From positions 62,001 to 126,000 of the forward strand of contig PAAG01000020.1 in NCBI GenBank assembly GCA_002698785.1: a stretch of 64,000 bases of DNA, read 5' to 3'. Source of the stretch: Verrucomicrobiales bacterium. Lineage in GTDB: Bacteria > Verrucomicrobiota > Verrucomicrobiia > Verrucomicrobiales > DEV007. The position numbers and the translations under genes were made by a program. This document shows, piece after piece, positions 12,502 through 22,383 of the stretch; positions within the stretch are counted from its first letter, which is position 1; the number at the start of each line of letters is the position of its first letter. The notes beneath the pieces were generated by a model. The model searched no databases. It had not been told where the DNA came from and saw nothing but the letters and a program-made list of their open reading frames with translations.

Positions 12502-14451
12502 CTAATTGATAAAATTCTTCACCGGTTGATGAATGGTCAAACCGGTCGGCCCCAGAGAGCCATATGAAGTATTGACTGAATCGGCCACTTGCGGATCGGT
12601 CCCGATCGAATCTTCCAGCGAATCGCTGAAAGAATCTCCGTCGGTATCCGGATCGTCGTAGTCCGTCCCCAGGGCATATTCTTCGGCATTTGTTAGACCG
12701 TCTCCGTCCGCATCGAGTCCGCCGTCCACGGGATCGACCGGGTCGAAACCGTTCGCCACCTCCCATGCATCGTCGATTCCATCGCCATCCGTGTCGTCGT
12801 CAGTGGGATCGGTGCCTGCCTGATATTCGGCGAGGTTATCCAGGGTATCACCATCGCCGTCGTCATCCGCGTCCTGGTCGTCGAGAGGGTCGAGCCCGTA
12901 GGTGACTTCCCACCCGTCGGGGATGCCGTCCGTATCACTGTCGGCGACGAGTGGGTCGGTGCCGTGGGTATTTACTTCGGCGCCGTCCGATAGCCCGTCA
13001 CCGTCGGTGTCGAATTCTTCGGGGTCCGTCCCTTCCTGATACTCGGCCAAATTGTCCAATGAGTCTCCGTCTCCGTCGTCGTCGGCATCTTGATCGTCCA
13101 GGGGATCGAGGTTGTTGGTGATCTCCCAACCATCTGGCAATCCGTCGCCGTCACTGTCGGATGAGAGAGGATCCGTGCCATAGGTGTTCAGTTCGAGATC
13201 ATCGGCGATGCCGTCTCCATCTGTATCTGTCACGGTGGGATCGGTTCCGGCGTAGAGCTCTTCCAGGTTGGTGAGGCCATCGGAATCGGCATCGTTGCCG
13301 GAGCCATAGCTGACGAGGTCGCCGAAATATTCGATCTCCCATGGATCGGGCAGGTCATCGGTATCGGTATCGGTCCAGCCTGTACCGACGAATTTCACCG
13401 CATCGACGGTGACAAGATCGGTGGTCCCGGTATTGTCCACAGTCACATATTGATTCGAACCGCCTTTATCGAAAGCATAGCTACCCAGATAAACCCACTG
13501 CCCGTCCCCTTCGGTTTGATCGACACTCAATGGGTCGACCTGCGAGCCCGCGTATCCGACATCGACCGGCACATAGTCGTCACGATCGACTCCCGCGGAC
13601 CAGCGGAGAAAGACTTCATACGTTCCCGTAACAGGGATGACCGGAGTGAAGGTGACATCTCCCGAACCCTTGGTGATGCCGTCGTCGTCGAGGTAGTCCC
13701 CTTCGAGGAGAAACTCACCTGTCGCCGCCGTTCGCGCATTCCAGCTTCCCGTCGCGGTGCCGGCATCTTCGTCGAGAGTGATTTCCCGGCGGAAGGCAGC
13801 CGATTCCCGAATCGCTTCGGAAAAATCGGCGGTTGCCGTGTAGCTCGCATCTCCGGAACTGATCGCGAGGCCACCGAGCAAACCGCTGGAAGTCGGAAGG
13901 TCGACACCGAGCAAAGGATTCCAGGTCGTCCCATTAGTGGAGTAATAGGCGACCACGGTCTCGCTGTCGACGACGAGGCGGAACCAGTCGGTTGCGGAAA
14001 CCGAGGCCAGCGGAAACTCCACCGCCGTCTCCGCGGTGTCCGGCCGCCACTGACAGATCACCGAACCATCCGCCTTTGCCGCAAGGAACACATAGGCATC
14101 GTCAGCGTTGGTGCCCGTACGGATCATGATTCCGGCCAATTCGTCACCGAGCGCGCCGGAAGGAGCTGCATCGAGTTGCGCGGTAATGGATTCACTGGGT
14201 GCGAGCGAACCGTAGACGAAGAAGCCTTCGTCCACAGTGCTACCGAAGCCGACTCCAATCGAGTCGACGGTAGTGAGATCGGTCATTGAATCGTACGTCG
14301 CCGAACCTGCGGAACCGGGAGTGCCGATGTCGGTTTGGGTCCAGTTGGGGAGGGTTGGTGTAATGGCAAATGAGAAACTACAGAATATGGTTCTTATTAC
14401 AACCAGAATAACGAAGCTAAACTTTGATAGAGAACAATGGCGGGAGAACAT
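12502..14451 (-). CDS. Surface protein with golvesin-like domain and thrombospondin type 3 repeats
   Basis: A 649-residue exported protein. A signal peptide (residues 1-29) follows an AAAGGA ribosome-binding site. Residues about 30-215 resemble a LamG/DUF1349-type beta-sandwich. Residues about 225-350 resemble a golvesin/Xly C-terminal-like carbohydrate-binding domain (TGTYEVFLRWSAG ... VTVDAVKFVG). From about residue 355 to 630 the chain is a series of calcium-binding DxDxDGxxD thrombospondin-3 repeats, including two near-identical 72-residue units. It is probably a calcium-stiffened surface stalk or adhesin. It starts 64 bases after the Rhs partner gene on the same strand and may be in the same transcript. 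Confidence 0.8.
   Translation of the reverse strand: MFSRHCSLSKFSFVILVVIRTIFCSFSFAITPTLPNWTQTDIGTPGSAGSATYDSMTDLTTVDSIGVGFGSTVDEGFFVYGSLAPSESITAQLDAAPSGALGDELAGIMIRTGTNADDAYVFLAAKADGSVICQWRPDTAETAVEFPLASVSATDWFRLVVDSETVVAYYSTNGTTWNPLLGVDLPTSSGLLGGLAISSGDASYTATADFSEAIRESAAFRREITLDEDAGTATGSWNARTAATGEFLLEGDYLDDDGITKGSGDVTFTPVIPVTGTYEVFLRWSAGVDRDDYVPVDVGYAGSQVDPLSVDQTEGDGQWVYLGSYAFDKGGSNQYVTVDNTGTTDLVTVDAVKFVGTGWTDTDTDDLPDPWEIEYFGDLVSYGSGNDADSDGLTNLEELYAGTDPTVTDTDGDGIADDLELNTYGTDPLSSDSDGDGLPDGWEITNNLDPLDDQDADDDGDGDSLDNLAEYQEGTDPEEFDTDGDGLSDGAEVNTHGTDPLVADSDTDGIPDGWEVTYGLDPLDDQDADDDGDGDTLDNLAEYQAGTDPTDDDTDGDGIDDAWEVANGFDPVDPVDGGLDADGDGLTNAEEYALGTDYDDPDTDGDSFSDSLEDSIGTDPQVADSVNTSYGSLGPTGLTIHQPVKNFIN
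12821..13252 (-). repeat. Two 216-bp coding repeats (thrombospondin type 3)
   Basis: The coding sequence repeats with a period of 216 bases (72 residues): units at about 12821-13036 and 13037-13252. Both encode an LDPLDDQDADDDGDGD core and a following LDNLAEYQ.GTDP. Synonymous changes are scattered, so the units are older than a fresh duplication. This is protein-level repetition within the surface-protein gene. Confidence 0.75.
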
Positions 14452-14515: not shown

Positions 14516-14932
14516 TTATTCGTAAAGCTTCCGGAGCGGAATCAATATCCACATTTGCTGACCTGACTCATGTATATATTCGATCCGGACGACCGATTCC
14601 GATGCCAGTTGAGCCGATGATGCGAAGAACACTCTCTCTATCACATCTTGATCTCTTTTAATCTTTTTGGTCCTCAAGAAAAATTCAGAGCGATCATCAA
14701 ATACAAGTCGGCAGATAATCGAATCCTCAATGATATTTTCCTTTGTGACATTAATATCGATGACCAAATCTCTCAAATTCTCACTACTCTGGTTTACTGA
14801 GAATCGAACTATCCCGAGTTTAGATTCGAATTCCCCCTTCGATATATCTGCGGTTTCCGAGAGAGGATCGGAAAGAGCAGTTACCTTAATGAAACAGAAT
14901 AGAAATAACGTTGCAAATTTTAGAAGTTTCAT
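14516..14932 (-). CDS. Exported protein coupled to Rhs; candidate immunity protein
   Basis: A 138-residue protein with a signal peptide (MKLLKFATLFLFCFIKVTA). Its ATG overlaps the Rhs stop codon in ATGA (14929-14932), so translation is coupled to the Rhs gene. The mature part alternates charged beta-strand-like stretches (LVIDINVT, ICRLVFDD, VVRIEYIHE, MWILIPL) and resembles no family I can name. Base composition is AT-rich: a hand count at 14521-14580 gives 25 G+C in 60. Position, size and coupling are those of an immunity protein for a polymorphic Rhs toxin. The signal peptide would place it where an exported toxin could act. This function is inference. Confidence 0.75.
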   Translation of the reverse strand: MKLLKFATLFLFCFIKVTALSDPLSETADISKGEFESKLGIVRFSVNQSSENLRDLVIDINVTKENIIEDSIICRLVFDDRSEFFLRTKKIKRDQDVIERVFFASSAQLASESVVRIEYIHESGQQMWILIPLRKLYE

Positions 14933-17900
14933 TTTCGCGGACTAAAATATGTTGGCAGATTAACAACACTCCCATCAGGATTTACCTGAGTAAAGCCCCC
15001 GTCACTATACCAATCACGGTCAGGATCGTTACCTGAGGATGCAGAGCACTGTGAATTTGCGATCGTAACCTTACAGCCAGATATTCTGGAAATCTGGGAT
15101 GCAAAGCCTAATCCAGTATTGCAAGCATGAATTTTTATATGGCATTCTCCGCAAAATTGGATCATACCTAATCCTACTTGTTCTTCGAATTGGGAAATTA
15201 CTCGAGCTCCGTCAGTTGGCATATAAGCCTCTGGCGGGCGAGGAGCAGAAAAGCCCAATGCCGCGAGTTCTGGATCCCAACCTACCTCACTTTCATAATC
15301 CGGATGAAGAGCAGCCCACTCTGGATTAAGGCTGTGAATTGTTTCGAAATTGTCGTAAAATCCATGAAAACCAAAATCAGCTCCTCCTAGAAATTCTCCT
15401 TGTGACGAGTGCGTAGCAATACGCAAATCAGTAATGCAACAACATTCGCTTGTTTTTCTCTCCAAAAAATCAAATAGGGCTGCCCCGTCTCGACCACCTT
15501 CCACGTTTGCGTTATCTCTTCCGCCAGCCATATCGAGAAAGAAATTATCAGGAGAACCGTCCCCGTGATCTGGCCACCCTGTGAATGCGAACCCGACAGG
15601 AGCACACTGGAGCCCTAAAACGTCCGACCGAAGATTTGGCTGATTAGCAACGAACGCATACAAATTCTTACCACCATATTCTCCTATTGGGTCCCTACTC
15701 AACCATTTTCCGGTTTTCGGCGTGTAAAATCTATACCCATAGTAAGATATACTTACCAATTCATCCTCGCTCTTTGTGCTGTACTTCCAGTTATTCATTA
15801 CCCCGTCCACCTCAATCTCGGAGAGCGCACCCCCAAACGCATCATACTCATACGCCGCCACCATATCTCCGTCGGAGGCATCGGTTAGGGTCATCACATT
15901 TCCTCCTCCGTCGTAGCTAAAAAAGTGTCTCGGCGGCGTGGTTCCCTGGTGTTCTGCCGTGCTGACGAGTCCACCGGCTCCGCCCGCGCCAAATGGTGTG
16001 CTGCTAATGTCCAGGCCCCAGAGGTTGCTCTTTATGAGATCGTTCGATCCGTCCCATTCTCCGACGAGGTCCCAGCCGTGGTAGACGAACTTCTGTGTTT
16101 CGACTACCTGCCAAGATCCCATGACTTTTTCATACGCAACCCGCCCGATGCGGCGACTGCCGTAGTCGTACTCGTACTCGACTTTCACTTCCTTGACACC
16201 GGCAGGTGCGGCTCCGGAAATGGTTTCCACTGAGAGAAGGCGGTTTTCCCCGTCCCAGGTGTAATTGAAGTATCCATCGGACGTGAGGTTGCCGTCGGCA
16301 TCGTAGGAGGGGGAAACGCTTGCTTTGGGAACGAGGCGCTTCTTGACGGTGGTGTCGGTGTTGCCGCCTTCGGTCGCTTCGATGGTCATGGTGGCGAGGG
16401 CCGCCCCACTGCTGTTGCTCACGCTCACGGAATGGGAGAAGTGCTCTCCCTGCCGGTCGTCGGGGGCGGAGCTGTTGACCGTCACAGTCGCTCCAGTGTT
16501 GGCCTCGCCGGTGGCGACCGCCACGCCGGGAGTGGTGATGGAGCCATACTGGTTTCGATCTCCGGCGGCGGGGGTGTAGGTGATCGTGTGGAGGTTCGCC
16601 CCGCTGGAATCGCCCCCGAAGGAGGCGCTGGTACGGTTGCCGAGCAGGTCGTAAGCATAGGCATACTGCTCACCCGCGACGTGGGTGCCGTTATCGAAGC
16701 GGCGGGAGGCGGAGGTGACCTGGCCCAGAGAATCGTAGCCGTAGACCCAATCGCGGCCGTTTTCGCGGTCGGTTTTCACAATCTGGTTGGCGTCGTTCCG
16801 GGTGTAGGTGAAGCTGCGCTGCACAGGGGCGGTGGAGCCGGTTCCGAGGGAGCCGATGGAAGACAGGTAACCGAGAGCATCGTAAGTGCGGCCTTCCACC
16901 AAACGAGTGACGCTGTTTTCCGTCATGGTGCTGCTGCGCAGGAGAGAAGAATTCGGATGGTAGGCGTAGGTCGCCTGCCGGGTGTCCTCGGCCACGAAGG
17001 ACAAACGCGAGGTGCCCGACTGGTAGCCGCGCGTCTGGGTGACGGATTGGCTGTTCATGGAAAAAGTGAGAGACGTCCTCCGATTCAGTGTATCATATCC
17101 GGGATCGACGATCAATCCGTCGAGAGTTCCGCCGGAGATGCTTTCCTGCTCCATGATTCCGGGATCGCCGAATGTGTAGGTGTGAGTTGCGGCGCCACGA
17201 CTCACGGTTTTCACGTCTCCGTTCCGGTGGTAGGTGTAGGCGACATCGGGAGTCGAGTCGGAGTAGTCGACGGAATCAAGGCGGCCTGCGTCGTCGTAGT
17301 CGTAGGTGGTGACAATGCTGCGCCCTCCGGTGCGGGTGGAAAGGCGACGCCCGGGAGTGTAGGTCGTGGTGTAAGCGGTAGTCCCGGCGATGAGCTTGCC
17401 GGTAGGTTGTCCTGACTGGGCGTGATAGGTCCAGGTCGTGACCTGCTCGTCGGAAGTGCCGTCATTCGTGGTAAGGGTCTGGCGCCGCCCCTGCGGTGTG
17501 TAAGTGTAGAGTTGCGCATAGGTGCGAGCGCCGGATACAGACTCGAGCAGACCGGTGAGGTAGTACTCGTAATCGACCTGGCCGGAATCCGGGAGGGTCA
17601 CGAGATCTTGCCGGCCCATGTCGTCATAGACGTAGGTAGTCGTCTGCGCGTTGCGCCCGTCGCCGGGTGCCGGGGTCGTCATGGTATGGACCTCGTCGGT
17701 GGTGTAGTAGGTGTAGGTGGTCGTACCGTTGCGAGCGTCGGTCGTCGAAGCGACGCGCCCGTGGGTGTCGTAGGTGTAGCTGGTGCCCTGCAGAACTGTG
17801 CCAGATCCATTGGTGATGGTGGAGGAGGCGAGACGACCGCCGGAATATTGATCAACTCGCTGTCCGCCGTGATTGAGGGTCGTGGTTTCGGTCCAACTGC

Positions 17901-20900
17901 CCGCGCTGCCGTAGGTGGTGACGGTGCTTTCGTCGCCCGCCGGGGTTGTGGTCCAGACGGCGTTTCCGGAAACTTCGCGGTCCCGTTGCATGACCACGGT
18001 GGAAGTGCCACTGTTGTCGGTCTGCCAGACTTCCTGAACTGTGCGTGCCACGGCATAGGCACCGGGTCCGGCGACGACAGACTGGACACTGCGGGTGACA
18101 ACGTCGGTCCCGCCGAGATCGATCGTGTCGTTCGCGTTCATGTCGATGGCGGTGGTCGTCCTGCGCCCGCGATCGTCGTAGCCGTATAGGGTGACGACGC
18201 CGTCCGGGTCTTCCGATTTTTCCATCTGCCCAAGACTGTTGTAGGTGGTCTCCCATGTGGCACTGTCAGCGCCGATAACGAGTGAGGTCCTTCCCGCGAG
18301 ATCGGAGTATGTCTTGGTCCACTCGGAGGTTGCGGAACCGCCGGCGTCGAGCTTGGTTTCTTTGACGAAATACTGCATGCCCGCACCGCCGTTTTCGACA
18401 CCGTAGTCGTAAGCGACTCCGAACTCGGCAGTGCCGGTTCGCGATTTCAGGTTACCGTCCGGGTAATATGTCTCGATGCGGGTGCCTCCGTTAGGGAGCG
18501 TTGTTGTGACGACGCGATTTCCGCTTCCGTCGATGGTGTGTGCGATGGTGGTATCGCGATTTCCGGCGGTTTCGCTTGCAACAGGCCGACCCGCAATATC
18601 GACGGTGCTGCTGTAGGTCTGGATGACGGAGCCGTTGTTGTCGTCACGTTCGGTAATCTGCGTGCGACCGGAACGGCTCGTGGTGGTGGTGATACCGAGA
18701 CGAGTTTCGCTTTTCTCAATATTGTCAACTTCGTCGAAGGTCGTGGTGATGCCATAAGCATCCGTGTGGGATACAAGGCCACAGCAGTCGTAGTCGTAGG
18801 TCTCGGTGCGACCGTCCAGAAGGGTAATCTCCGTCGGGCGGCCAAATCCATCCTGCGCGGTGGCGAGCCGTTGATCGACGGTAAGGCCGGAATCGATATC
18901 GACCAAGGTTTCGGCGAGGGTGTTTCCCCTACGGTCCACGACTGTGGTGGTGCGGGTGCCGTCTACGATATCGGTCCCGGTGCCATTGGGCTCTCCCCTT
19001 TCTACTATGGTAGTGAGAGTCTCACCATTCTCGATGTCGTCATTGCTCTGTCCGTCGAGAGCGCTGTAGTCGTAGAGGACCATGGTTCCGTCAGGGTTGA
19101 GAACGGACTTGATCATCCCGGAATACTCGGTGCCCATATGGAGGCGGACTTCGCGGACGAGGTTTGTCGTGGCTGCAATTCCCGCGCCGGGAACGGTGCA
19201 GGTGATGTCGTCGTAGCCGTCAACGTAGACGCGACGGTACTTACGACTTATCTCCTCGCCCACCAGCTCTTCAATCGTGGTGAAATAGTCCACCGAACCT
19301 CCCGTGCTTGTGGGGTAGATGTATTCGGTGACCCGGCTGAGGTTGTCCGCCGCATCGAAGGCCGCATCCTTGAACTGGGCCTTCACTTTAATGAGGCGTC
19401 CGTAGGTGTCGTATTGATAGGTCTCCCAGTAGCCGTATTCGTCGACGTAGGACTTCTGGTACCGGTAGTTGTCCCCATCGTTCATATCATCGTCGTAGTA
19501 GTCGTAAGTCCGAGTAAGAGCAACTCCGTCGGGATCGACGATTTCCTCGATCATTTCCTCACCCCAGTCGAACATCTCAAAGCTCTGCCGGACTTTGGAA
19601 AGAATGACTCCGGTTCCATCCTTGACGGTTCTTTCCTCGATTCGAACGCCGGAAATGCCCGATGCGGGCTCGGCATATTCCTCGATGGTGTTCCCATTGT
19701 CGGATGTGTAGGTCCACACATCGGTGCCGTCGTCGTAGCTGAACATCCACCAGTCGGTATTGTTGCCCGCAGTCCGGGTGATTTTCACCTCATTGAATGT
19801 ATTGCCAGTCTGATCCGGGTTTTCGACAAGGAAAACAGTGTGGGGCGCCCCTCCCGGAATCGGATACTCTCCGGATCCCCCGGGGGTTCCCGAACCGTCC
19901 CAGTGGTAAAACTTCAGTTCGTAGCTGGAACCGGACAGAACATTAACATCGACCAGAACGCCGGGGCCGATAGCCTGTAGGAGGCCGTAGGTGTTCGCCT
20001 GATAGATCCCCTGAAAACCAAATCCCCCACGAACCACCAGCGCGTTCGGCGTATACCAATTGGTGGTGGGCTTTTCAAAAGCGAACGCGATCGCTCCCGA
20101 AGTTTTTCCAAACCGGGACGATCCCATATTGAAGGTGAAATGCGCGCTATTCGTTTTTGCAGCCACACTTCCCGTTCCACACTCACCGGACTCGCAGGAA
20201 TCGCATTTTTCTGGCTCATAGTTAAATCCTTCGAGCAGGGCTCTAATGGTGGAAGCTTTCCCGCTCCAGACACCCTGGGTTGATGGCCCATTATAGCGAG
20301 TGCTGACCAAACCTTCCACCTCGTGGAACTGCCCGTCGTCCGGTATCGGCGGATCATCCCCGATTGCATAGTCTGCCATGGCGAACACGCGAATTTCTGC
20401 GGAAAGCCCCAGATCCTTTCCGCGCTGGCTCAGGGTGTAAAAGGGCTGGCTCACAGTAGCGCGACTGTTGTACGGTGCCGAGCTATTAAACTGGCCCGAA
20501 TACCATGAGATATACGAATAAAGTGCATATCCAGGAGGATCGGGAAGGTATGAGTTGAAAGTATCAATCGCATCCGCAAGAGCCCCATCGATCGCATCGT
20601 CATAGGACGGCGAGATATAATTCTGCTTCTCTCCCAAGACAATTCTCCGCGAAACATTGTGTCCCGTTAGTACTTTCTCTGCCCGATCCAGCCTCTCTTT
20701 CGCCAATGCGAACTTCTCGCTCGGATCCATTGCCTGAAGGTCGACCGATGAAATGGAATCCCACCGGTTCGACAACTTTTGTTCGTCAGGATCCAGCGTC
20801 TTACCAACTTTTCCGTCAATATATCCTGACATAAATCCGTTGGGATCTGTAATATCTGCCAGAATTGTGTTGATCATCGTATCGAACGACGACTCCACTG

Positions 20901-21186
20901 CAGCGGTCGTTCCCGCACCAGTGTAAAAGCCCCAATCTGGAAAGTATGGATAGCCCGAAGGGCTTTGGTTGGCTGCATTCTTCAACGTAGCCGGATTGCC
21001 CGAATTCATATCATACGCCAGCTTTCGCTCCTGGTATTGACGAACAAGGCGTTCGATTTCGATCACATCTGGTATTGACGGACTTGGCCGAGGTCCAGCA
21101 AACGAAAACGAAATAGAGTAGAAAACAATACAACTTATCACAAGCGGCACGAAGCCACTCCTGAATACAAAGTTCAGCAATCTCAT
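14929..21186 (-). CDS. Rhs/YD-repeat protein with CHAT/caspase-like C-terminal domain
   Basis: A giant exported protein of 2085 residues. The ATG at 21186 begins a signal peptide (MRLLNFVFRSGFVPLVISCI); a TTG two codons upstream is also in frame. A unique N-terminal region (to about 320) is followed by a cysteine cluster CDSCESGECGTG (about 325-340), then some 1400 residues of YD repeats (TYDYDDAGRLDSVDYS, YTYDTHGRVAS and many more). The core ends in the conserved YYGYRFYTPKTGKWLSRDP box near residue 1820. The last 225 residues (1861-2085) are a distinct AT-rich domain with His1926 in IATHSSQG and Cys2022 in HACNTGLG. A coupled small exported gene follows. It is probably a polymorphic toxin delivered to neighbouring cells. 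Confidence 0.88.
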   Translation of the reverse strand: MRLLNFVFRSGFVPLVISCIVFYSISFSFAGPRPSPSIPDVIEIERLVRQYQERKLAYDMNSGNPATLKNAANQSPSGYPYFPDWGFYTGAGTTAAVESSFDTMINTILADITDPNGFMSGYIDGKVGKTLDPDEQKLSNRWDSISSVDLQAMDPSEKFALAKERLDRAEKVLTGHNVSRRIVLGEKQNYISPSYDDAIDGALADAIDTFNSYLPDPPGYALYSYISWYSGQFNSSAPYNSRATVSQPFYTLSQRGKDLGLSAEIRVFAMADYAIGDDPPIPDDGQFHEVEGLVSTRYNGPSTQGVWSGKASTIRALLEGFNYEPEKCDSCESGECGTGSVAAKTNSAHFTFNMGSSRFGKTSGAIAFAFEKPTTNWYTPNALVVRGGFGFQGIYQANTYGLLQAIGPGVLVDVNVLSGSSYELKFYHWDGSGTPGGSGEYPIPGGAPHTVFLVENPDQTGNTFNEVKITRTAGNNTDWWMFSYDDGTDVWTYTSDNGNTIEEYAEPASGISGVRIEERTVKDGTGVILSKVRQSFEMFDWGEEMIEEIVDPDGVALTRTYDYYDDDMNDGDNYRYQKSYVDEYGYWETYQYDTYGRLIKVKAQFKDAAFDAADNLSRVTEYIYPTSTGGSVDYFTTIEELVGEEISRKYRRVYVDGYDDITCTVPGAGIAATTNLVREVRLHMGTEYSGMIKSVLNPDGTMVLYDYSALDGQSNDDIENGETLTTIVERGEPNGTGTDIVDGTRTTTVVDRRGNTLAETLVDIDSGLTVDQRLATAQDGFGRPTEITLLDGRTETYDYDCCGLVSHTDAYGITTTFDEVDNIEKSETRLGITTTTSRSGRTQITERDDNNGSVIQTYSSTVDIAGRPVASETAGNRDTTIAHTIDGSGNRVVTTTLPNGGTRIETYYPDGNLKSRTGTAEFGVAYDYGVENGGAGMQYFVKETKLDAGGSATSEWTKTYSDLAGRTSLVIGADSATWETTYNSLGQMEKSEDPDGVVTLYGYDDRGRRTTTAIDMNANDTIDLGGTDVVTRSVQSVVAGPGAYAVARTVQEVWQTDNSGTSTVVMQRDREVSGNAVWTTTPAGDESTVTTYGSAGSWTETTTLNHGGQRVDQYSGGRLASSTITNGSGTVLQGTSYTYDTHGRVASTTDARNGTTTYTYYTTDEVHTMTTPAPGDGRNAQTTTYVYDDMGRQDLVTLPDSGQVDYEYYLTGLLESVSGARTYAQLYTYTPQGRRQTLTTNDGTSDEQVTTWTYHAQSGQPTGKLIAGTTAYTTTYTPGRRLSTRTGGRSIVTTYDYDDAGRLDSVDYSDSTPDVAYTYHRNGDVKTVSRGAATHTYTFGDPGIMEQESISGGTLDGLIVDPGYDTLNRRTSLTFSMNSQSVTQTRGYQSGTSRLSFVAEDTRQATYAYHPNSSLLRSSTMTENSVTRLVEGRTYDALGYLSSIGSLGTGSTAPVQRSFTYTRNDANQIVKTDRENGRDWVYGYDSLGQVTSASRRFDNGTHVAGEQYAYAYDLLGNRTSASFGGDSSGANLHTITYTPAAGDRNQYGSITTPGVAVATGEANTGATVTVNSSAPDDRQGEHFSHSVSVSNSSGAALATMTIEATEGGNTDTTVKKRLVPKASVSPSYDADGNLTSDGYFNYTWDGENRLLSVETISGAAPAGVKEVKVEYEYDYGSRRIGRVAYEKVMGSWQVVETQKFVYHGWDLVGEWDGSNDLIKSNLWGLDISSTPFGAGGAGGLVSTAEHQGTTPPRHFFSYDGGGNVMTLTDASDGDMVAAYEYDAFGGALSEIEVDGVMNNWKYSTKSEDELVSISYYGYRFYTPKTGKWLSRDPIGEYGGKNLYAFVANQPNLRSDVLGLQCAPVGFAFTGWPDHGDGSPDNFFLDMAGGRDNANVEGGRDGAALFDFLERKTSECCCITDLRIATHSSQGEFLGGADFGFHGFYDNFETIHSLNPEWAALHPDYESEVGWDPELAALGFSAPRPPEAYMPTDGARVISQFEEQVGLGMIQFCGECHIKIHACNTGLGFASQISRISGCKVTIANSQCSASSGNDPDRDWYSDGGFTQVNPDGSVVNLPTYFSPRK
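14932..15606 (-). other. Rhs C-terminal toxin-like domain (CHAT/caspase-like)
   Basis: This is the variable tip of the Rhs protein, residues 1861-2085. LRIATHSSQG and IKIHACNTGLG match the two catalytic signatures of CHAT and related clan CD peptidases (xATHG and SACxTGxG), in the right order and about 96 residues apart. A following GCKVTIANSQ stretch resembles the strand after the catalytic cysteine in that fold. A hand count at 15121-15180 gives 22 G+C of 60, against 35 of 60 in the Rhs core at 17221-17280. The AT-rich segment begins near 15780, just ahead of the conserved core end. Assignment to clan CD is inferred from motifs only. Confidence 0.55.
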
Positions 21187-21577
21187 GGGCAAACACGAAA
21201 GACTTGCGCTCTTCTTACGTAACTATACAAACAAAATCAAGTTCATATACAGAGTATATGTATTTATTTCCTGAAGACCCTCACCTCATTCACTTTCAAG
21301 AAGGTTGGCAATCCAAATGAGTATCACCCCGTTTCGAATATATTTCCGCTGCGGCATTGCCGAATAGTCTGCGCCCCCTTTTCAGGTGTGCCCTTCAAAC
21401 GAATCACAGCTAAATTCCAGAGTTTAGAACACTGGTCATCCGTTAATTTGTCACAGCTGCGCCTTCAACTTTTCAAGAACGCCTGGGGTGAGGCAATAGA
21501 GACCGAAAGGGCCGTTTTTTTGTGGCCATATTTTACGTCCATTGAACCCGGAACAGCCGGGGACACCGACTACGGAT
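21187..21577. promoter_or_regulatory. Intergenic region upstream of the Rhs gene
   Basis: This AT-rich gap should hold the Rhs promoter, but no hexamer pair with good spacing is clear. It contains an inverted repeat CATATA-CAGAG-TATATG at 21244-21260, a possible operator. At 21499-21525 it carries a terminator-like GAGACCGAAAGGGCCG followed by seven T residues, on the plus strand although no intact plus-strand gene precedes it. The 88-residue plus-strand frame at 21388-21654 is not protein-like. Confidence 0.4.
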
Positions 21578-21979
21578 TCAATAGGAGAAGTACAAGAGTA
21601 TTGATCGGCGAGTTCCCTTTCGCATTATCCAGAAAGAGTCACTATTGTCGGTGATGGAAAGGTGAAGCACTTGGAAATCGTGAATGTTTTCACGCTCGAA
21701 GAACAAAGCACACTGCTTCCTGATGTAATCAGAATCCTCTCCATCTGCAGCCTCAAATCCATATTCGGTAGCGATTTCCTGTCTTCGTGCGGAATCAATC
21801 GCAAGAATCCACCCCTCTGCTCGATCGCTCAAAGTGCTTCTGTCTTTGTAGGACTCTACCTCAATCTCTCGCAAGACATCTCGTCGAAATACTTCTGAAA
21901 TTGATTTCGATCCCTTCACGCCACAACCGGAAATCATCAGAAAGGACAATACAGTAGCTATCTTTAAAGTTGATCTCAT
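21578..21979 (-). CDS. Small lipoprotein upstream of Rhs
   Basis: A 133-residue protein starting at ATG 21979. MRSTLKIATVLSFLMISGC is a lipoprotein signal with a good lipobox, Cys19 being the lipidation site. The mature domain (SISEVFRRDVLREIEVESYKD, later FERENIHDFQVLHLSITDN) is not recognised. Low G+C content matches the Rhs tail and its coupled partner. It may be an orphan immunity or accessory gene of the Rhs island, or an unrelated lipoprotein. An in-frame ATG at 21997 would add six residues ahead of the signal and is less likely. Confidence 0.6.
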   Translation of the reverse strand: MRSTLKIATVLSFLMISGCGVKGSKSISEVFRRDVLREIEVESYKDRSTLSDRAEGWILAIDSARRQEIATEYGFEAADGEDSDYIRKQCALFFERENIHDFQVLHLSITDNSDSFWIMRKGTRRSILLYFSY

Positions 21980-22383
21980 ACAGGATTGATCCAGCAAGCG
22001 ACCTTACAACACTAGATCTATAGCATCGTCATGCACGAGTTTTTAACGGTGCATAAGGGCGAAGGGCGTATCGGGAAATCGATCCTACGGCTTAAGATCA
22101 TGAGATGACATGTCGGACTTTCCTTCCCGCTGCGACATAGACAGAACTTCACTTTGGTGAAAGCGTAGCTTCTCAAACTCCCGTCGGGTTTCGAAATACT
22201 CCCGCTTCGATTCGAATCTTTGAAATACGACCCGAGCAATGGGTATCTGGCTCTATTCTCCCATACCCTTAGGGCGTAAGTACGATATCACTCCTATAAT
22301 TCCCATAAGAGAATTTCGAACTATCGAAATATCCCCCTGCTCTCCTCACTCCCGAAAAAAAGAAACCCTTGTAAAAACATAAC
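21980..22383. other. Gene-poor stretch with a possible coding remnant
   Basis: No intact gene is seen here. On the minus strand, 22252-22085 is open for 55 codons between stops without a usual start codon. It reads like a charged helical protein fragment (QRFESKREYFETRREFEKLR, then SDMSSHDLKP and a stop). The opposing 73-residue frame at 22018-22239 has less natural composition. GTGCATAAGGG near 22050 recurs near 9840, upstream of the dehydrogenase. The stretch may hold a decayed gene or a dispersed repeat. Confidence 0.3.

What the first reader, a model, noticed from the sequence alone, without database searches (positions are those of the whole stretch)
14932..15606. CHAT/caspase-like peptidase as an Rhs toxin tip
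The last 225 residues carry IATHSSQG and HACNTGLG, in the order and spacing of the His and Cys motifs of CHAT/clan CD peptidases. Most known Rhs tips are nucleases, deaminases or ADP-ribosyl-transferases. A caspase-like protease delivered by a Sec-exported Rhs protein would be an unusual effector.
Basis: partly seen in the sequence, partly recalled or inferred. Interest (0 to 1): 0.7.

Follow-up and report, generated by a model that had tools for sequence, protein, structure and literature searches.

The report
Caspase-like Rhs toxin tip, exported antidote
A giant bacterial Rhs surface protein ends in a small domain that is almost certainly built like a caspase-type protease and is probably a weapon against rival bacteria, because an exported "antidote" gene sits directly behind it here and in nearly all of its newly found relatives.

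Summary
In detail: His (15409-15411) and Cys (15121-15123) lie at the ends of two predicted parallel strands in the last 225 residues of a 2085-aa Rhs protein. No Pfam, NCBIfam or PDB sequence model recognises this tip. Genome searches found about 15 distinct relatives, mostly Rhs C-termini, in Verrucomicrobiota and Lentisphaerae/Kiritimatiellaeota MAGs. His and Cys are kept in every aligned member (15/15). Profile-profile comparison links the tips to DUF4347 (E about 1e-5; score 40.7 against at most 12.9 in 100 shuffles), His on His and Cys on Cys; CHAT and C14 gave no match. Two AlphaFold models (low overall, good core confidence) have clan CD topology. Their best structural match is Tce1, a putative T6SS cysteine-protease effector (Z 9.4 and 6.1), followed by caspases, legumains and CHAT proteases. 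A downstream gene with an export or anchor signal follows 14 of 16 tips; in the window it overlaps the Rhs stop by 4 nt. Best reading: a polymorphic toxin whose clan CD protease acts outside the cytoplasm, with an exported immunity protein. Protease activity and toxicity are not shown. Caspase-like polymorphic toxins were predicted in 2012, so this is a new variant of a known kind.

The parts
14929..21186 (-). Rhs/YD-repeat protein, 2085 aa from the ATG at 21186 (or 2087 aa from the TTG at 21192)
   Evidence: ORF; RHS_repeat 9.3e-05; TIGR03696 5.9e-16; start region
21097..21186 (-). N-terminal signal-peptide-like stretch MRLLNFVFRSGFVPLVISCIVFYSISFSFA
   Evidence: read from sequence; no signal-peptide program was run
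15610..15846 (-). Rhs-associated core domain, up to the tip junction
   Evidence: TIGR03696 residues 1783-1861
14932..15606 (-). C-terminal tip: clan CD (caspase-like) domain, putative cysteine-protease toxin
15409..15411 (-). putative catalytic His (tip 66, protein 1926), end of predicted strand 58-65
   Evidence: 15/15 conserved; model
15121..15123 (-). putative catalytic Cys (tip 162, protein 2022), end of predicted strand 151-161
   Evidence: 15/15 conserved; model
15436..15438 (-). Cys57, conserved structural cysteine at start of the His strand
   Evidence: 14/15 conserved
15142..15153 (-). CxxC (Cys152, Cys155), conserved structural cysteines at start of the Cys strand
   Evidence: Cys152 14/15, Cys155 13/15
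15073..15075 (-). Cys178, conserved structural cysteine at start of the next strand
   Evidence: 13/15 conserved
14516..14932 (-). 138-aa exported small protein, candidate immunity protein; its ATG overlaps the Rhs stop (ATGA)
   Evidence: no Pfam family

Best explanation
The last 225 residues are the interchangeable toxin tip of an Rhs polymorphic toxin. The tip folds as a clan CD (caspase/legumain/CPD-like) cysteine peptidase with a His1926-Cys2022 dyad. The Rhs protein is exported through Sec; the tip is carried in or on the Rhs shell and reaches a competitor by an undetermined route. Outside the cytoplasm (most likely in the periplasm) it cleaves a protein or proteins of the target cell. 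The next gene, 14516-14932, makes an exported protein that inhibits the tip in the producer and its siblings. Four further cysteines at the starts of three core strands probably form disulfides that stabilise the fold outside the cytoplasm. Shown by computation: homologous family, invariant His and Cys, clan CD topology, linked exported genes, tip/core mosaicism. Inferred: proteolysis, toxicity, site of action, immunity, disulfides.
For: Family: relatives; His and Cys 15/15. Fold: DUF4347 profile match, score 40.7 with E 8.5e-6 against at most 12.9 in 100 column shuffles; AlphaFold models with the dyad at strand ends; VIA-align best hit 9qpe_G (Tce1) Z 9.4, rmsd 4.0, 150 aligned, then drICE 6.3 and legumain 6.2; for the L017 model Tce1 Z 6.1, and by entry title about 41 of the 50 rows are clan CD proteins. 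Immunity: downstream gene within -4 to +153 nt at 13 of 15 tips, plus L096, all with hydrophobic N-termini or lipoboxes. Homologous partners follow homologous tips: L003/L005/L009, and L015/L032. Polymorphic behaviour: L012-L015 cores 69% and tips 27% identical; L015-L032 cores 82% and tips 51%; L012-L027 cores 41% and tips 42%; L003 and L004 tips identical behind different upstream sequence. Same-genome contrast: partners of the two L080/L081 Rhs tips have no export signal.
Against: No activity or toxicity data. Models are of low overall confidence (mean pLDDT 53.7 and 54.5; only four sequences could be used), and Foldseek alone gave no significant match. The substrate pocket is unresolved. 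The nearest structural relative, Tce1, was not toxic to E. coli or yeast, and its paralogue Tce2 harmed only yeast (PMC13323088). The window's own candidate immunity gene has no detected homologue. Tip L014 has no downstream partner, and L029's has no standard start codon. The Rhs proteins of the relatives read show no N-terminal signal, so delivery is unexplained.
Confidence: 0.66

Rival explanations
1. The tip is a clan CD autoprotease that releases or matures the Rhs protein, as the CPD of large toxins does, and the downstream gene is a regulator or carrier rather than an immunity protein.
For: Clan CD domains are established self-processing domains in large toxins, and Zhang et al. consider many caspase-like domains in polymorphic toxins to be releasing peptidases.
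Against: Releasing peptidases usually sit upstream of the toxin domain; here nothing follows the domain. The tip is the variable, exchanged part and has a linked partner gene.
Confidence: 0.13
2. The domain keeps the clan CD fold and dyad but acts on animal, protist or fungal cells, as proposed for Tce1/Tce2, not on bacteria.
For: Best fold match is Tce1, whose paralogue Tce2 is antifungal.
Against: Tce1/Tce2 have no obvious immunity genes, whereas these tips nearly always have a linked exported partner, which points to a target shared with the producer.
Confidence: 0.12
3. The fold is clan CD-like but catalytically inactive, working as a binding module or pseudo-enzyme; the partner is unrelated to immunity.
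For: No activity data; low-confidence pocket.
Against: His and Cys are 15/15 invariant while surrounding positions, including structural cysteines, vary.
Confidence: 0.06
4. The motifs are a chance resemblance and the tip has another fold.
For: No direct Pfam/NCBIfam/PDB sequence hit; no Foldseek E-value at or below 0.001.
Against: DUF4347 profile match far above shuffles, two models with clan CD topology and clan CD matches, invariant dyad.
Confidence: 0.03

Closest known systems
Tox-Caspase polymorphic toxin domains (Zhang et al. 2012, PMC3482391)
   Same: Caspase-like fold with H and C at the C-terminus of polymorphic toxins, including Rhs-repeat ones; immunity genes nearby
   Different: Verrucomicrobia are not in the listed phyletic spread; the listed immunities are Imm36 and Imm57, and no Pfam immunity family was detected here; the 2012 work is prediction, and whether this sequence family was inside that group could not be checked
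DUF4347 (PF14252)
   Same: Nearest sequence family; His and Cys motifs align over about 100 columns
   Different: No tip is a clear Pfam match (best member E 0.015); DUF4347 matches in the order lie in large open frames of 1736-4681 codons; the four structural cysteines are not in the DUF4347 sequences compared
Tce1/Tce2, Pseudomonas aeruginosa H3-T6SS putative cysteine-protease effectors (PMC13323088; PDB 9qpe)
   Same: Best structural match, Z 9.4 over 150 residues; His-Cys dyad in the same order
   Different: Tce1 is a T6SS cargo loaded in Hcp3, with no obvious immunity gene and no antibacterial effect seen; the window protein is an Rhs tip with a partner gene, and no VipB was found in the genome
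CHAT (PF12770) and Peptidase_C14 (PF00656)
   Same: Clan CD fold; SAVED-CHAT, TPR-CHAT and caspases appear among structure matches
   Different: No significant profile-profile similarity to CHAT or C14 members of the same genus and order
Cpe1, interbacterial cysteine-protease toxin (PMC12136450)
   Same: Cysteine-protease toxin between bacteria
   Different: Papain-like, cytoplasmic targets GyrB and ParE, unrelated fold (title and abstract; discussion of PMC13323088)

Membership tests
Clan CD cysteine peptidases | alpha/beta fold with catalytic His and Cys at the C-terminal ends of adjacent parallel strands, His before Cys | tested here: met
   Strands 58-65 then H66, and 151-161 then C162; second model 62-70 then H71, and 122-132 then C133; clan CD matches. 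Models are of limited confidence and strand adjacency is inferred from the structural matches.
Clan CD cysteine peptidases | dyad conserved across the family | tested here: met
   15/15 for both
Clan CD cysteine peptidases | peptidase activity dependent on the Cys | not testable with these tools
   needs protein chemistry
CHAT (PF12770) | sequence above the family's cut-off or clear profile homology | tested here: not met
   no Pfam hit; profile-profile E 0.1-0.3
DUF4347 (PF14252) | sequence above Pfam cut-off | tested here: not met
   window tip has no match; best member E 0.015, although profile-profile homology is clear
Peptidase C80 (CPD) | sequence match to the family, InsP6-binding basic surface, beta-flap | tested here: inconclusive
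Rhs polymorphic toxin-immunity system | Rhs core followed by a variable C-terminal tip at a conserved junction | tested here: met
   TIGR03696 then tip; D-x-x-G type junction in most relatives and core/tip identity mismatch
Rhs polymorphic toxin-immunity system | linked downstream immunity gene | tested here: met
   gene present, overlapping by 4 nt; protective function not tested
Rhs polymorphic toxin-immunity system | tip toxic, neutralised by partner | not testable with these tools
   bench test needed
T6SS-delivered Rhs effector | T6SS in the same genome | tested here: not met
   no VipB match in a 96%-complete genome, E. coli control positive
Tox-Caspase (Zhang 2012) | caspase-like C-terminal toxin domain with H and C | tested here: met
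   toxicity itself untested and the original alignment was not available for direct comparison

The most novel reading that the evidence does not exclude
A separate family of disulfide-stabilised clan CD protease toxins, spread over Verrucomicrobiota as exchangeable Rhs tips, that kill competitors by proteolysis in the periplasm and are each held in check by an exported or membrane-anchored inhibitor.
Probability: 0.4. Interest if true: 0.68.

Novelty: new variant of a known kind. Interest (0 to 1): 0.5.

Why it matters
Caspase-like toxin tips were predicted in 2012, and in the papers I could search I found no demonstrated antibacterial caspase-like toxin with an immunity partner. This family offers about 15 toxin/partner pairs, several in small genomes of one well-sampled genus, with a clear dyad to mutate. 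The uniformly exported partners predict where the target lies, which makes the question testable.

Tried and rejected
Direct family searches of the tip (Pfam, NCBIfam, PDB sequences) gave nothing. Plasmid and viral collections held no relatives. The 10-member alignment was too divergent for a viral-contig scan. Foldseek alone gave no significant match; its top rows (glutamate-receptor domains) had TM-scores near 0.2 and were disregarded. CHAT and C14 were considered as the family and rejected on profile comparison. C80 does not stand out in the lists but is not excluded. A zinc C4 site for the four extra cysteines was considered; L030 and L096 lose Cys155 and Cys178 while keeping Cys57 and Cys152, which fits two disulfide pairs better, but the sample is small. 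The own-genome hit L002 (E 0.74) lies in a NeuB-like protein by eye and is not a relative. The small lipoprotein ORF listed under L014 lies upstream of its tip and is not counted as a partner.

Full report
Observation. The minus-strand ORF ending at 14929 encodes an Rhs/YD protein of 2085 aa from the ATG at 21186 (a TTG two codons earlier gives 2087) with a signal-peptide-like N-terminus. The Rhs-associated core TIGR03696 ends just before the stretch in question. The last 225 residues contain IATHSSQG and HACNTGLG exactly as stated. Neither Pfam, NCBIfam nor the PDB sequence set recognises this stretch.

Relatives. Genome searches with the tip and then with growing alignments found related domains in a minority of genomes: 4 of 388 in the phylum with the single sequence, 10 of 387 in the order, 12 of 388 in the phylum and 10 of 384 in the class with alignments. 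Three loci carry names: a Verrucomicrobiales MAG, a Lentisphaeraceae MAG and a Kiritimatiellaeota MAG. Most sit at the C-terminus of an Rhs core; some, such as L030 and L004, are orphan or displaced tip cassettes with Rhs fragments nearby. Plasmid and viral collections had none.

Conserved residues. In 15 aligned tips the His and the Cys are present in all. Cys57 and Cys152 are in 14, Cys155 and Cys178 in 13, and the surrounding sequence varies strongly (MAFFT consensus). The typical pattern is CCIxxLTxxxHG ... FCxxCxIxxxxC ... TGCxV. The most divergent member, L031, has lost all four extra cysteines but keeps HSSG and GCNT, so the dyad is the most strongly kept feature. L030 and L096 have lost Cys155 and Cys178 and kept Cys57 and Cys152, which fits two disulfide pairs; this is inference from a few events.

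Sequence homology to known families. A profile of the tips matches a profile of DUF4347 sequences from the same genus and order with E 2.5e-6 (15 tips), 8.5e-6 (13 tips) or 5.5e-5 (6 tips), placing His on His and Cys on Cys over about 100 columns. The score was 40.7 for the 13 tips, against a maximum of 12.9 in 100 column-shuffled versions; reversed alignments of the families gave E 0.2-0.8. The same comparison with CHAT and Peptidase_C14 members found nothing. Pfam lists DUF4347 weakly for two individual tips (best E 0.015).

Fold. Overall confidence is low (mean pLDDT 53.7 and 54.5; pTM 0.56 and 0.59), but the core strands and helices score about 65-85. In both, the strand before the His and the strand before the Cys run directly into those residues, and the helix-strand order is that of clan CD. 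Foldseek against the PDB gave no E-value at or below 0.001. VIA-align, a re-alignment of Foldseek's candidates, put chain 9qpe_G (Tce1) first in both cases: Z 9.4, rmsd 4.0, 150 residues aligned; and Z 6.1, rmsd 3.5, 128 aligned (tied there with an unrelated TFIIH chain). By entry title I count about 41 of 50 rows of the second list, and 13 of 50 of the first, as clan CD. The tool warns that Z under 8 can reflect a common arrangement; the weight lies in the uniform identity of the hits, the Z of 9.4 and the independent sequence link to DUF4347.

What Tce1 is. [quoted passage not shown] aeruginosa H3-T6SS. Their authors aligned them with the cysteine protease domain of TcdB and found a His-Cys dyad spaced by about 50 residues. 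Neither markedly affected E. coli growth, no obvious immunity genes were found, and Tce2 impaired yeast in a dyad-dependent way (PMC13323088).

Partner genes. In the window the ATG of a 138-aa ORF overlaps the Rhs stop codon (ATGA). Twelve of the other fourteen tips are also followed closely (-4 to +153 nt) by a small gene, and so is L096. All fourteen partners begin with a hydrophobic export or anchor segment, some with a lipobox (for L096 read). Exceptions: L014 has no downstream ORF of 90 aa or more, and L029's downstream frame lacks a standard start codon. Partners of related tips are related (L003 with L005 and L009; L015 with L032); others share nothing detectable, and only one of those scanned carries a known domain (ankyrin repeats). 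Two other Rhs tips in the same genome (L080, L081, nuclease-like by eye) are followed by proteins without such a segment. The contrast suggests that the caspase-like tips act, or must be neutralised, outside the cytoplasm. Signal prediction was by hydropathy and reading, not by a dedicated program.

Polymorphic behaviour. Among relatives the Rhs core just before the tip can be far more alike than the tip (L012-L015 69% against 27%; L015-L032 82% against 51%). Tips can also match where cores do not (L012-L027 41% core, 42% tip; L003 and L004 have identical tips behind different upstream sequence). This is what tip exchange produces.

Delivery. The genome has no VipB match and three other Rhs-core places. 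The window's Rhs protein has a Sec-type N-terminus; the four relatives whose N-termini I could read do not (L093-L096). Delivery is therefore unexplained.

Mechanism. Most likely a toxin-immunity pair in which a clan CD cysteine protease is the toxic tip (confidence 0.66 for the whole statement; about 0.9 for the clan CD fold alone). Shown by computation: family, dyad, topology, linked exported genes, mosaicism. Inferred: proteolysis, killing, periplasmic target, inhibition by the partner, disulfides. Rivals are an autoprocessing peptidase, an anti-eukaryotic effector, a dead enzyme and chance.

Novelty. Zhang et al. 2012 predicted caspase-like domains as C-terminal toxins in polymorphic toxins, including Rhs ones (PMC3482391); 'Tox-Caspase' occurs in no other paper of the library searched. 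The class is therefore not new. New here are the Verrucomicrobiota family unseen by current models, its link to DUF4347, its four conserved structural cysteines and its consistently exported partners. I rate it a new variant of a known kind, interest 0.5.

Noticed in passing
window 21578-21997 (-): Small ORF upstream of the Rhs gene encoding a lipoprotein-like protein (MRSTLKIATVLSFLMISGC...); could be an orphan immunity gene of a lost tip.
   Followed up: partly
window 12502-14451 (-): Downstream exported protein with eight TSP3 repeats and a Golvesin_C domain.
   Followed up: no
whole genome G000: The genome is rich in clan CD peptidases: 14 Peptidase_C14, 6 CHAT and 1 DUF4347 matches.
   Followed up: no
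L080, L081 (own genome, contig C47): Two adjacent Rhs-core genes with different tips (nuclease-like by eye), each followed by proteins without export signals.
   Followed up: partly
L015, L028, L032 (genus g2): Tip-plus-partner cassettes with Rhs core fragments nearby, and a broken tip in L028 (split between frames), suggesting displaced orphan tips.
   Followed up: no
L093-L096: Rhs proteins of relatives (2036-2135 codon frames) show no evident N-terminal signal peptide, unlike the window's; their export route is unknown.
   Followed up: no
L030 and L096 tips: Cys155 and Cys178 are lost together while Cys57 and Cys152 stay, hinting at two disulfide pairs.
   Followed up: partly
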